From the NCBI GenBank assembly GCA_019240655.1, contig JAFAXX010000109.1:1-33162 (forward strand): 33,162 nt of DNA. Direction: 5' to 3'. This stretch comes from Solirubrobacterales bacterium (GTDB lineage: Bacteria; Actinomycetota; Thermoleophilia; Solirubrobacterales; Solirubrobacteraceae). The notes under the pieces were generated by a model. The model saw only the letters and a program-made list of their open reading frames with translations, did no database searches and was not told the origin of the DNA. A program made the translations under genes and the position numbers. How positions within the stretch are numbered: position 1 is the stretch's first letter; the number at the start of each line of letters is the position of its first letter. This document shows positions 1 to 33,162 of this stretch, one piece after another.

Positions 1-621
1 CGGAACGCGCTCGCGGACGGCGTCGAGCACGGCGATCGCGTTGCTGATCGCGTAGGCGATCTCCTGCACCGGCGTCGCGCCCGCTTCCTGCAGGTGGTAG
101 GAGCAGATGTTGATCGGGTTCCACTTCGGGACATGGCGGACCGTGTAGGCGATCGTGTCGGCGATCAGCCGCATGCTCGGGCCGGGAGGGAAGGCGTAGG
201 TGCCCCGGCTCAGGTACTCCTTGAGGATGTCGTTCTGCGTGGTGCCCTGGAGCTTCTCCGGGGCCACGCCATGGTCCTCGGCGGCGACGACGTACAGCGC
301 CAGCAGCCACGCCGCGGTGGCGTTGATCGTCATCGAGGTGTTCATCTGATCGAGTGGGATGCCGTCGAGCAGGGTCAGCATGTCGCCCTTGTGAGCGATC
401 GAGACGCCGACCTTGCCGACTTCGCCGCGGGCTAGCTCGTGCCCGGGGTCATAGCCGGTCTGGGTCGGCAGATCGAAGGCGATCGACAGGCCGGTCTGGC
501 CCTTTTCGAGGTTGCGGCGGTAGAGCTCGTTGGAGCGCCGCGCGTCGGAGTGCCCGGCGTAGGTGCGCATCAGCCAGGGGCGGTCGCGCTCGGGCAGGCG
601 CGGAGGCGAAAGCTCCGACAT
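1..621 (-). CDS. meaA: MeaA-type acyl-CoA mutase (ethylmalonyl-CoA mutase family), 5' part
   Basis: Partial gene; 207 codons are visible and the rest lies beyond the left edge. It belongs to the B12-dependent methylmalonyl-CoA mutase superfamily: RPWLMRTYAGHS (residues 14-25), FDLPTQTGYD (49-58) and further in QLQ-type core signatures such as NICSYHLQEAGATPVQEIAYA. The protein begins only 13 residues before RPW, without the long N-terminal extension of classical methylmalonyl-CoA mutase large subunits. It also reads PTQTGYD where those read ATHRGYD. From memory both traits fit MeaA/Ecm, which converts ethylmalonyl-CoA to methylsuccinyl-CoA. The crotonyl-CoA carboxylase/reductase at 8462-9712 supports this reading. 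I prefer ATG 621 over ATG 630 because a TACAAT box (634-629) sits 7 nt before 621 and actually overlaps the 630 codon. An isobutyryl- or methylmalonyl-CoA mutase remains possible without the C-terminal B12 domain in view. Confidence 0.82.
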   Translation of the reverse strand, partial: MSELSPPRLPERDRPWLMRTYAGHSDARRSNELYRRNLEKGQTGLSIAFDLPTQTGYDPGHELARGEVGKVGVSIAHKGDMLTLLDGIPLDQMNTSMTINATAAWLLALYVVAAEDHGVAPEKLQGTTQNDILKEYLSRGTYAFPPGPSMRLIADTIAYTVRHVPKWNPINICSYHLQEAGATPVQEIAYAISNAIAVLDAVRERVP

Positions 622-628
622 GCGGGGC

Positions 629-681
629 ATTGTAAGTGTGCAAGGAACCGTGTGGGCTGTCTGGATAGGGTTCGGTAACGT
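629..681. promoter_or_regulatory. Divergent leaderless-type -10 boxes of meaA and the divIVA-like gene
   Basis: On the minus strand TACAAT (634-629) lies 7 nt before ATG 621. On the plus strand TAACGT (676-681) lies 7 nt before ATG 689. Both fit TANNNT close to the start codon, as in actinobacterial leaderless transcripts. No convincing -35 hexamer or Shine-Dalgarno sequence is visible for either gene. The promoter assignment is inference. Confidence 0.45.
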
Positions 682-688
682 CAACCCC

Positions 689-1489
689 ATGCCCGATCAA
701 AGCTCAGCTTCCACGGAGCACGCCCTGATCCAGGAGATCACCGCTCCGCTGGCCACACTGCCCGATGACCCGGTCCAGGTCACCGCCGACGCCGACTTTC
801 CGGTCGTGCTGCGCGGGTATGACCGGATCGCGGTCGACGCCTACGTGAGGAAAACGAGCCAGCTGGTCGCCGAACTGCAGGCGACGCGATCGCCTGAAGC
901 GGCGGTCCGCCGTGCGCTCGAGCGCGTAGGCGAGGAAGTCGCAGGCATCCTGCAGCGGGCCCACGACACCGCCGCTCGGATCACGACCCACTCCCGCGCC
1001 GAGGCGGAGGACCGACTGGAGAAGGCCCGTCGGGAGGCGGCCCAGATCGTCGCTGCAGCCACGACCCGCGTCAAGGAGCTCGACGCCGAGACCGAACGGG
1101 TCTGGGCCGAGCGCCACCGGCTCGTCGAGGACGCCCGGGAGCTGGCCCGCCAGCTCCACGGGCTGGCCGACTCGGCCACCGACCGCTTCCCGGCCGCCGA
1201 GGAGCCCGAGGCCGATGCCGAGGCTGAGGCGGGCCCCGCGCCCGGCGCGTATGACCAGGACGCGGTGGGCGAGGACCTCGAGCCGACGGACGAGCCCCTG
1301 CCCGGCGCGCCAGCGTCCACGGGCGCGGGAGGACTTCCCGGCGCGGCTCGCGTACCCGGCACGGCAGAGCCCGGGCCCGAGGGCCCGGACAGCCGGGCGG
1401 GTAGCCGAGCCGACGACGACGATCCGGTCGAGCCCGAATCCTCCACTGCGCTGCGGCCGCTCGATACGCCGCCGGAGGCACGGCCCTGA
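689..1489 (+). CDS. DivIVA-domain coiled-coil protein
   Basis: 266 aa. Residues about 28-60 contain the DivIVA N-terminal signature (FPVVLRGYDRIAVDAYV), which in Wag31/SepIVA-type proteins binds membrane or the growth pole. Residues about 65-160 are rich in Ala, Glu and Arg with heptad-like spacing, which predicts a long coiled coil. From about 165 on the tail is acidic, Pro/Gly-rich and probably disordered. There is no catalytic motif. I infer a cytoplasmic, membrane-associated scaffold for growth or division. ATG 689 is chosen over the longer upstream reading because the DivIVA box then lies at the usual distance from the N terminus and a TAACGT box precedes it by 7 nt. The MBL hydrolase begins 11 bp downstream, so the two are probably co-transcribed. 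Confidence 0.75.
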   Translation: MPDQSSASTEHALIQEITAPLATLPDDPVQVTADADFPVVLRGYDRIAVDAYVRKTSQLVAELQATRSPEAAVRRALERVGEEVAGILQRAHDTAARITTHSRAEAEDRLEKARREAAQIVAAATTRVKELDAETERVWAERHRLVEDARELARQLHGLADSATDRFPAAEEPEADAEAEAGPAPGAYDQDAVGEDLEPTDEPLPGAPASTGAGGLPGAARVPGTAEPGPEGPDSRAGSRADDDDPVEPESSTALRPLDTPPEARP

Positions 1490-30662: not shown

Positions 30663-32086
30663 GCGCCACCGCGCTTCGGCCCTCGCCGCCGGCGCGCCGC
30701 CGCTCGCCGCTCGAGCGGCTCGAGGCGCTGTGCGATACCGGGAGCGTGCAGGTGCTGCGCTCACGCGTCGTCTCCTCGAAGCTCGGCGGGCGGGCCGCCG
30801 CGGGCGACGGCGTGGTCGGGGCGACCGGGCTGGTCGACGGGCGACCGATCGCCTGCTACGCGCAGGACGGCGCCTTCCTCGGCGGCTCGCTCGGGGAGCG
30901 CCATGCCGACACGGTCGTGCGGGTGCTGGAGACGGCCGGCCGCGCGCGGATTCCGGTCGTCGGCTTCGTCGAGTCGGGGGGCGCCCGGATGCAGGAGGGC
31001 ACCGCCGCGCTCGCCGGTTACGGCCGGATCTTCCGGCACACCGTCGCGCTGACCGGCGTGGTCCCGCAGATCTCGGTGGTCTCCGGGTCCTCGGCGGGCG
31101 GCGGGGCTTACTCGCCCGCGCTCACCGACCTGATCGTGATGACCGAGGACGCCGCCATGTTCCTCACCGGCCCCGGCGTCGTCCGCGAAGCGCTCGGCGA
31201 AGACATCGATGCCGCGGCCCTGGGCGGGCCGCAGGTGCACGAGCGAAACGGGGTCTGCCAGCTGGTCGCGCCCGACGAAGTGAGCGCGGCCGCGCGGGTC
31301 CGCGAGCTCCTCGGGTACCTGCCCGCGGCGGTCGGCGAGCCCGCGCCGCGCCTTGCCGCGGTCGATCCGGAGCTGGCCGATCCCGGCTCGATCGTCCCGT
31401 CCGAGCCACGGCGCAGCTATGACGTCCGGCTCGCCCTCGAGGGCATCGTCGACGCCGGCTCGCTGCTCGAGCTCTGCCCACGGTGGGCCCGCAATGTGGT
31501 CACCGCGCTTGCCCGGGTGGGCGGCCAGCCGGTGGCGATCGTCGCCAACCAGCCCCGCCACCTGGGTGGCGTGCTCGACGCCGAGGGATCGGAGAAGGCG
31601 GCCCGCTTCGTGGGCTTCGCCAATTCGTTCGGGCTCCCGCTGATCGCGGTGGTCGACACCCCGGGGTTCATGCCGGGTTCTCGCCAGGAGCGGGCCGGCG
31701 TCATCCGCCACGGCGCCGCGCTGGTCCGCGCCTTCGCCGCGGCGACGGTGCCAAAGGTGACGGTGATCCTGCGCAAGTCCTACGGCGGCGCCTACATAAC
31801 CATGAACTCCCGCGACCTCGGCGCCGACCTGGTCCTGGCGTGGCCCGATGCCGAGCTCGGGATCATGAGCGCGGCGGCCGCCGTGGGAATCGTGCACCGC
31901 CGCGAGCTGCGTCTGGCCCCCGACGCCGAGGCCGAGCGCGCGCGCCTCGCCGAGGTCTACGCCGACGAGCACCTGCGCGCCGAGGCCGCGGCGGCCGCCG
32001 GGTTCGTGGACGAGATCATCGAGCCGGGCGACACCCGGGAGCGGCTCGTCTGGGCGATGCGGACCCACGCGAGGCCGCGGCCTTGA
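30659..32086 (+). CDS. Acyl-CoA carboxylase carboxyltransferase (AccD6-like, fused beta/alpha type)
   Basis: 475 aa, GTG start in a GTGA overlap. Both crotonase-like halves are present. The N half carries the CoA-side oxyanion motif SGSSAGGGAYSPAL (about 141-154). The C half carries the biotin-side KSYGGAYITMNSRDLGAD (about 378-395). This single-chain architecture is that of AccD/PccB subunits, which move the carboxyl group from biotin to acetyl- or propionyl-CoA. Position inside the FAS-II operon points to acetyl-CoA carboxylation (malonyl-CoA supply), as with AccD6. The biotin carboxylase/carrier subunit is not in the window. Propionyl-CoA activity cannot be excluded. Confidence 0.88.
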   Translation: MSATALRPSPPARRRSPLERLEALCDTGSVQVLRSRVVSSKLGGRAAAGDGVVGATGLVDGRPIACYAQDGAFLGGSLGERHADTVVRVLETAGRARIPVVGFVESGGARMQEGTAALAGYGRIFRHTVALTGVVPQISVVSGSSAGGGAYSPALTDLIVMTEDAAMFLTGPGVVREALGEDIDAAALGGPQVHERNGVCQLVAPDEVSAAARVRELLGYLPAAVGEPAPRLAAVDPELADPGSIVPSEPRRSYDVRLALEGIVDAGSLLELCPRWARNVVTALARVGGQPVAIVANQPRHLGGVLDAEGSEKAARFVGFANSFGLPLIAVVDTPGFMPGSRQERAGVIRHGAALVRAFAAATVPKVTVILRKSYGGAYITMNSRDLGADLVLAWPDAELGIMSAAAAVGIVHRRELRLAPDAEAERARLAEVYADEHLRAEAAAAAGFVDEIIEPGDTRERLVWAMRTHARPRP

Positions 32087-32862
32087 TCCTGGAGGGCAAG
32101 CGCCTCCTGATCACGGGCGTGATCACCAAGGACTCGATCGCCTTCCACGCCGCCGAGCAGGCGCAACGGGAGGGCGCCTCGGTGGTGCTGACGAGCTTCG
32201 GCCGGGTGCGGCGGATGACCGAGCGCGCCGCCGCGCGGCTGCCCGAGCCGGTCGACGTCCTCGAGCTCGACGTCAACCGCGAGCAGGACCTGGCGGCGCT
32301 GACCGATTCCCTGCGCGAGCGCTGGGGCGGCATCGACGGCGCGCTGCACGCGATCGCCTACGCGCCCGAAGACGCGCTCGGGGGCCGGTTCATGACCGCC
32401 CCGGCGGACAGCGCCGCCCAGGCCTTCCAGACCAGCGCGTTCTCCTTGAAGGCGCTGGCCGCGGCGCTCGAGCCGCTGATGGGAGAGGGCGCGAGCATCG
32501 TCGGCATGGACTTCGACGCCACGGTGGCGTGGCCGATCTACGACTGGATGGGCGTGGCCAAGGCGGCGCTCGAATCGGTTTGCCGCTACCTGGCCCGCGA
32601 TCTCGGCCCCCGCGGGATCCGGGTCAACCTCGTCTCCGCGGGGCCGCTCGGCACCGTGGCCGCACGCGGCATCCCGGGGTTCGAGCAGTTGGCTTCGCTC
32701 TGGCAGGCGCAGGCACCGCTCGGCTGGGACGTCTCCGATCCGGGGCCGGTGGCCAGCGCGGTCTGCTTCCTGCTCTCCGACTTCGCACGGGCGATCAGCG
32801 GCGAGATCATCCACGTCGACGGTGGCTTCCACGCGGTCGGCGCGCCGTCGGCCGCCGCCTGA
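32083..32862 (+). CDS. fabI: Enoyl-ACP reductase (FabI/InhA-like)
   Basis: 259 aa from TTG 32083 (TTGA overlap with the carboxyltransferase stop). FabI features: LITGVITKDSIAFHAAE (9-25), and Tyr153/Lys160 in IYDWMGVAK with the preceding GMDFD, a stretch shared with mycobacterial InhA. The C terminus has SGEIIHVDGGFHAVG. It carries out the NADH-dependent last step of each elongation cycle. The TTG start is accepted because it gives the normal FabI N terminus (LEGKRLLITG); no ATG is available before the Rossmann motif. Last complete gene of the operon. Confidence 0.93.
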   Translation: MILEGKRLLITGVITKDSIAFHAAEQAQREGASVVLTSFGRVRRMTERAAARLPEPVDVLELDVNREQDLAALTDSLRERWGGIDGALHAIAYAPEDALGGRFMTAPADSAAQAFQTSAFSLKALAAALEPLMGEGASIVGMDFDATVAWPIYDWMGVAKAALESVCRYLARDLGPRGIRVNLVSAGPLGTVAARGIPGFEQLASLWQAQAPLGWDVSDPGPVASAVCFLLSDFARAISGEIIHVDGGFHAVGAPSAAA

Positions 32863-32869
32863 GCCGCGC

Positions 32870-33162
32870 GTGGGGCGGCTGCGCCTCGGGCAGGAGCGCG
32901 TGGCTCGGGCCTGCGCGCTCGCGGGCGCGGTCGCGATTGCCTTCTCGAGCATCCTCGTGCGCCTCAGCCACGCCTCGCCGTCGACGGCGGCGATCTTCCG
33001 CTGCGCCTACGCGCTGCCCGCGCTCGGCGCGCTCGCGGCGGAACCGCTCTACGTCCTCGCCGACACAGCGATCGTCGGGCACCTCGGCCGCCCGCAGATC
33101 GCCGCGCTCGGGCTCGCGGGAACGGTGCTGGCGGGCGCGTTCACGATCTTCAACTTCCTCAC
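32870..33162 (+). CDS. EamA/MATE chimeric transporter frame (3' truncated by window end)
   Basis: Partial; 97 codons visible from GTG 32870, 7 bp after fabI. Residues about 14-50 (AGAVAIAFSSILVRLSHASP, then TAAIFRCAYALP) read like the N terminus of an EamA/DMT permease. From about residue 48 on, ALPALGALAAEPLYVLADTAIVGHLG and AGTVLAGAFTIFNFL read like TM1-TM2 of a MATE/DinF antiporter. The frame stays open across the joint. The shared ALPALGALA stretch (33011-33043) could be the crossover point. Either a real in-frame fusion/deletion or an assembly joint between two transporter genes. An ordinary MATE gene with an odd N terminus is the alternative. Confidence 0.6.
   Translation, partial: MGRLRLGQERVARACALAGAVAIAFSSILVRLSHASPSTAAIFRCAYALPALGALAAEPLYVLADTAIVGHLGRPQIAALGLAGTVLAGAFTIFNFL

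What the first reader, a model, noticed from the sequence alone, without database searches (positions are those of the whole stretch)
32870..33162. In-frame EamA-to-MATE transporter chimera at the right edge
The visible frame starts with an EamA/DMT signature (IAFSSILVRL, TAAIFRCAYALP) and turns without a frame break into a MATE/DinF signature (AAEPLYVLADTAIVGHLG). These families are unrelated. ALPALGALA fits both at the joint, so the crossover may have used about 30 bp of shared GC-rich sequence (33011-33043). Seen: the frame and the two motif sets. Inferred: fusion by recombination, or an assembly error.
Basis: partly seen in the sequence, partly recalled or inferred. Interest (0 to 1): 0.7.

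Follow-up and report, generated by a model that had tools for sequence, protein, structure and literature searches.

The report
Assembly error at a contig end
The apparent fusion of two unrelated transporter genes is most likely an assembly mistake in the last ~150 bases of a contig: the rest of the first gene sits at the start of another contig of the same genome, and the second gene's fragment looks like it comes from a different bacterium.

Summary
The frame is real as printed: open from 32870 to the contig end, EamA-like on the left, MATE/DinF-like on the right. It is very unlikely to be a gene. The window is a whole contig (C45 of 191) and the MATE part is its last 144-153 bases. A same-genus eamA ortholog (298 aa) maps onto the window's own genome in two pieces: residues 2-50 at C45:32891-33037 (80%) and 85-294 at bases 1-633 of contig C165 (76%), with 34 residues unassembled between. 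C165 goes on to cofE, cofC and cofD, which lie next to fabI-eamA in 4 of 4 relatives compared. So eamA is very probably intact and cut by a contig break. The tail is 48/48 residues identical to dinF of three other MAGs, against at most 78% in 145 other genomes of its own family. No other MatE match was found in its genome. No second chimera appeared in the searches made. Best reading: a misassembled contig end joined at a short GC-rich word. Reads could not be mapped, so a rare strain-level fusion is not strictly excluded.

The parts
32083..32862 (+). fabI, enoyl-ACP reductase, intact; the anchor for synteny
   Evidence: NCBIfam NF005908 390.3 bits against a cut-off of 299; Pfam adh_short_C2 E 3.8e-72; 77-86% identical in 20 of 24 same-genus genomes
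32870..33018 (+). true 5' part of the eamA (DMT-type transporter) gene that follows fabI; eamA similarity fades out between 33018 and 33041
   Evidence: 80% identity to residues 2-50 of the G023 ortholog; same position after fabI in the closest relatives
33010..33039 (+). joint: GC-rich stretch encoding ALPALGALA, compatible with both genes at its left end and dinF-like on the right
   Evidence: best dinF BLAST matches begin at 33001-33016 (L107 at 33010), eamA matches end at 33026-33041; L086 (dinF) holds 33011-33039 exactly (29 b), eamA loci at most 14 b
33019..33162 (+). foreign tail: N-terminal part of a MATE/DinF gene, cut by the contig end
   Evidence: MatE residues 50-94, TIGR00797; 48 of 48 aa identical to L105, L107 and L133, DNA 126-129 of 144

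Best explanation
The last ~150 bases of contig C45 are a misassembly. The chromosome carries an ordinary, intact eamA gene after fabI; the assembler followed it up to the segment coding ALP-x-L-x-x-LA, crossed at a short GC-rich word to a dinF (MATE) gene of another bacterium in the sample, and the contig ended 120-150 bases later. The real eamA continuation was assembled separately as contig C165, which starts about 100 bases further into the same gene. The joint is in frame simply because the shared word lies in the same reading phase in both genes. Shown: eamA split over two contigs, matching synteny, the tail's closest relatives, no other MatE match found in this genome, and no second chimera in the searches made. 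Inferred: adjacency of C45 and C165, a metagenomic origin of the assembly, and the assembler step itself.
For: (1) The window is contig C45 in full and the joint is 123-152 bases from its end. (2) The eamA ortholog of G023 (298 aa) finds residues 2-50 at C45:32891-33037 (80%) and 85-294 at C165:1-633 (76%); the third and last match in the genome is 27% identical. (3) C165 continues with a PALP gene, then cofE, cofC, cofD and npdG; cofE, cofC and cofD lie next to fabI-eamA in 4 of 4 same-genus stretches compared, npdG in 3 of 4. (4) The MATE tail is 48/48 aa identical to L105, L107 and L133 and 90.2% identical in DNA to L107 over 153 bases. In the family search, 73 of 146 genomes have a match of some kind; the best tail identity listed there is 78% (G158), and in the same genus 73% (G016) and 67% (G042). 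In a tree the tail falls in a group of seven (itself and six MAG loci, support 0.887) that holds no locus from the window's family. (5) PF01554 finds no match in the window's genome, and the 95-aa frame matches only itself there. (6) No locus beside the window matches the frame end to end in 41 relatives, 146 family genomes, the 80 kept loci of genome contigs, plasmids (no match) or viral contigs (no relative).
Against: No reads were available, so coverage across the joint was not seen. The word common to both known parent families at the joint is only about 9 bases (33010-33018), and eamA loci share at most 14 consecutive bases with the window there; that is shorter than common de Bruijn word sizes (recalled: 21 or more), so either this genome's own eamA is closer to dinF here than its relatives are, or a chimeric read or a gap-closing step is needed. 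The dinF source itself is not in the searched collections (best DNA 130 of 144, L108). eamA directly after fabI is not universal in the genus: by position it is so in 7 of 20 same-genus genomes with a full fabI, one of these (G016) only 62% alike; in 8 the eamA match lies elsewhere, in 5 there was none. PF01554 would also miss other MATE pieces as short as the tail, since it did not flag the tail itself. Four of the six MAGs grouping with the tail are titled Thermoleophilia or Gaiellaceae, and Thermoleophilia also holds Solirubrobacterales, so 'another order' rests on one title (L113) and on distance, not on a shown placement.
Confidence: 0.88

Rival explanations
1. The same kind of assembly error, but within one genome: the organism has its own dinF that went unassembled, and the misjoin is between its own eamA and its own (perhaps transferred) dinF.
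For: The genome is 91.5% complete, so a dinF could be missing; 2 of the 27 other same-genus genomes have a strong MatE match (G016, G042, E below 1e-20).
Against: The tail is 48/48 identical to dinF of other MAGs but only 73% and 67% to those of G016 and G042.
Confidence: 0.08
2. A genuine eamA::dinF fusion in this genome or in some strains of the population, made by illegitimate recombination at the GC-rich joint after acquiring a dinF piece from a donor outside the family.
For: The frame stays open across the joint; horizontal transfer could explain the foreign affinity of the tail.
Against: The 3' part of the same eamA is at the start of C165, followed by its expected neighbours; the joint sits ~150 bases from a contig end; no second copy in the searches made.
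Confidence: 0.03

Closest known systems
EamA / DMT transporter (PF00892) encoded next to fabI in the closest relatives of the same genus
   Same: First ~50 residues, gene position after fabI, and the 3' part on contig C165
   Different: The window copy stops being EamA at about residue 50, where the contig goes wrong
MATE family DinF transporter (PF01554, TIGR00797) of Thermoleophilia/Actinomycetota MAGs (L105, L107, L133)
   Same: 48 of 48 residues identical
   Different: Only the first ~48 residues of the MATE core are present; the dinF start and its own upstream sequence are missing
Chimeric contigs of metagenome assemblies (PMC7299287, passages seen)
   Same: Sequence apparently from more than one genome in one contig, which the review puts down to shared sets of k-mers
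   Different: The review speaks of closely related species and of sequencing errors; here the parents look distant, and the joint happens to be in frame, so it looks like a gene fusion

Membership tests
EamA (PF00892) | EamA repeats of ~135 residues over the curated cut-off (two repeats in the ortholog) | tested here: not met
   The window frame holds only the first ~50 residues and gives no profile match; the ortholog L010 scores 77.1 bits with two stretches, and the own continuation on C165 62.8 bits with two stretches
MATE / DinF (PF01554, TIGR00797) | MatE repeats over the curated cut-off (two in the full-length dinF L107) | tested here: not met
   Only profile positions 1-45 of 161, 19.7-21.2 bits against 24.9; TIGR00797 30.2-33.3 against 147.4; L107 scores 147.4 bits with two stretches
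Genuine gene fusion | Same junction in an independent genome or strain | tested here: not met
Genuine gene fusion | The parent gene is absent or interrupted at its original locus | tested here: not met
   eamA residues 85-294 are present at C165:1-633 with the expected neighbours; 34 residues between are unassembled, so intactness is inferred
Assembly chimera | Joint near a contig end, the two sides having different genomic affinity | tested here: met
   contig end; affinity
Assembly chimera | A word shared by both parents at the joint, long enough for the assembler | tested here: inconclusive
   26-29 bases in some dinF loci, at most 14 in 14 eamA loci; the actual parents are not in hand
Assembly chimera | No reads, or a coverage drop, across the joint | not testable with these tools
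   Reads are not held

The most novel reading that the evidence does not exclude
A rare strain of this population really carries an in-frame eamA::dinF fusion, made at a microhomology of about 9-14 bases with a dinF acquired from outside its family, while the assembled majority (C45 + C165) keeps eamA intact.
Probability: 0.03. Interest if true: 0.45.

Novelty: not a real feature. Interest (0 to 1): 0.05.

Why it matters
It matters as a caution: the ends of draft contigs can carry 100-150 bases from another organism that look like a clean in-frame gene fusion. If it were true, it would be a natural fusion of two unrelated transporter families.

Tried and rejected
Whole-frame and half-frame Pfam/NCBIfam scans: the EamA half gives no match by itself, so orthologs were used instead. 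Two weak DNA matches in the own genome (C159:1436-1488, C144:485-543) were examined and rejected: they are gapped GC-rich matches, no EamA or MATE protein is visible by eye in the six frames around them, and neither contig is in the MatE or EamA lists of the own genome. The other EamA genes of the genome (17 matches) were rejected as the source of the 3' part, since only C165 matches the ortholog well. Hits that span both halves: G081 (12-94, one stop), L126 (11-95) and L136 (19-95) were translated and are ordinary dinF with unrelated upstream sequence; G033 (L050, 10-95) shows an ordinary dinF N-terminus; L182 (18-95, 47%) was not looked at. Plasmids gave no match, viral contigs no relative. 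My first Pfam try on L107 was in the wrong frame and gave nothing; the right frame gave MatE 147.4 bits. Rows dropped: orthologs were picked by motif patterns that I wrote, so orthologs with other motifs were not counted (14 distinct eamA sequences kept; 99 distinct dinF-type sequences, 60 printed). The tree used 48 dinF rows (top 45 by identity plus named extras) of 100, over 144 bases; support for tail + L107 is only 0.67, for the wider group of twelve 0.495. Kinship of the L107 genome to the window's could not be had (one search does not tell it), so lineage statements rest on record titles. Paper searches were seen as listings only; PMC7299287 as passages.

Full report
What was checked. 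The frame described is in the sequence. From GTG 32870 it stays open to the end of the window and reads through the EamA-like SSILVRLSHASPSTAAIFRCAYALP into the MATE-like AAEPLYVLADTAIVGHLG. MatE and TIGR00797 match residues 50-94 and 50-96 of the 97. The first 49 residues alone give no profile match, but window 32891-33037 is 80% identical to residues 2-50 of a 298-aa protein of a same-genus genome that scores 77.1 bits to EamA.

Where it lies. The window is the whole of contig C45 of the genome G000 (4,061,231 bases, 191 contigs, completeness 91.5, contamination 4.4), and base 33162 is the contig end. The supposed fusion is therefore the last ~290 bases of a contig, and the MATE part its last 144-153.

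What should follow fabI. Of 24 other same-genus genomes, 20 have a full fabI (77-86% identical). By position of the frame's match, eamA lies directly after fabI in 7 of the 20 (G004, G007, G018, G019, G022, G023, and a more distant copy in G016); in 8 the eamA match is elsewhere or on another contig, and in 5 there was no match. The seven include most of the closest ones by fabI. tblastn of the C165 proteins against four of these neighbourhoods (G019, G023, G004, G022) finds eamA, cofE, cofC and cofD in 4 of 4, npdG in 3 of 4, and the PALP (TrpB-like) gene in 0 of 4.

Where the rest of the gene is. A search of the own genome with the intact G023 ortholog gives three matches: residues 2-50 at C45:32891-33037 (80%), residues 85-294 at C165:1-633 (76%), and one distant paralog (27%). 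C165 opens inside eamA at its first base and goes on to a PALP gene, cofE, cofC, cofD and npdG (the names cofD and npdG are mine from recall, cofE, cofC and PALP are Pfam matches). So the gene is cut by a contig break, with 34 residues (about 102 bases) not assembled. That C45 and C165 are neighbours on the chromosome is inferred from this, not shown by reads.

Where the tail comes from. PF01554 has no match at E 0.001 in the own genome; the fragment at the end of C45 is itself too short for that search, so equally short pieces elsewhere would be missed, but the 95-aa frame also matches nothing there but itself. Of the 27 other same-genus genomes, strong MatE matches (E below 1e-20) are in 2, G016 and G042; weaker matches were not looked into. 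The tail's 48 residues are identical in 48 of 48 positions to L105, L107 and L133, with 126-129 of 144 bases the same; the best DNA match is L108, 130 of 144. Over 153 bases from 33010 it is 90.2% identical to L107. In the window's own family the best tail identity listed is 78% (G158), and in its genus 73% (G016) and 67% (G042). In a FastTree tree of 48 dinF sequences plus the tail, the tail sits with L107 (support 0.67) within a group of seven, itself included (0.887): L105, L108 and L111 are titled Thermoleophilia, L113 Gaiellaceae, L107 Actinomycetota, L114 Actinobacteria. Gaiellaceae belongs to the order Gaiellales. The window's genus contains a genome titled Solirubrobacterales: 300 bases of L087 from G043 lie in L115 letter for letter; that order is also in Thermoleophilia. 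So the tail points outside the window's family; 'another order' is likely but not shown. The true source is not in hand.

The joint. The best dinF matches to the window begin between 33001 and 33016 (L086 at 32978), eamA matches end between 33026 and 33041. In 14 of 14 distinct eamA relatives caught by my motif the residue after ALP is V (9) or L (5), not A as in the window, so the sequence is probably dinF from about 33019 onward. The longest exact word shared with the window here is 26-29 bases in two dinF loci (L105, L086), 11-20 in the other 13 tested, and 10-14 in 14 eamA loci. The shared word may be longer in the actual parents; it is not known. Being in frame needs no special explanation, because both genes read the shared word in the same phase.

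Is it seen elsewhere? Three of the widest hits were translated and are plain dinF.

Mechanism and verdict. [quoted passage not shown] it speaks of closely related species and sequencing errors, while the parents here look more distant. A misassembled contig end of either kind, between organisms (0.88) or within one (0.08), fits far better than a true fusion (0.03).

Noticed in passing
G000 contig C165 (L192:675-2072, minus strand): A PALP (TrpB-like) gene lies between eamA and cofE in this genome; tblastn did not find it in the four same-genus neighbourhoods compared, where eamA and cofE are convergent and adjacent.
   Followed up: partly
window 32083-32086: fabI seems to start with TTG overlapping the stop of the upstream carboxylase-like ORF (TTGA), an ordinary translational overlap; the carboxylase label is recalled, no profile was run.
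   Followed up: no
window 1-690, minus strand: The left contig end cuts a methylmalonyl-CoA mutase gene (Pfam 248.4 bits, residues 34-227 of 230); no sign of a chimera at that end.
   Followed up: partly
G039:C117:3302-4144: The fabI homolog of this same-order genome matches in two pieces that overlap on the query (residues 2-139 and 136-257) with lower identity in the first (62% against 78%); possibly a local insertion or an assembly problem.
   Followed up: no
G016 and G042 (same genus): Strong MatE matches are patchy in the genus: E below 1e-20 in 2 of 27 same-genus genomes besides the window's.
   Followed up: no
same-genus genomes: The eamA gene that follows fabI in the closest relatives lies elsewhere in others (about 14 kb away on the same contig in G012 and G024), so the neighbourhood has been rearranged within the genus.
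   Followed up: no
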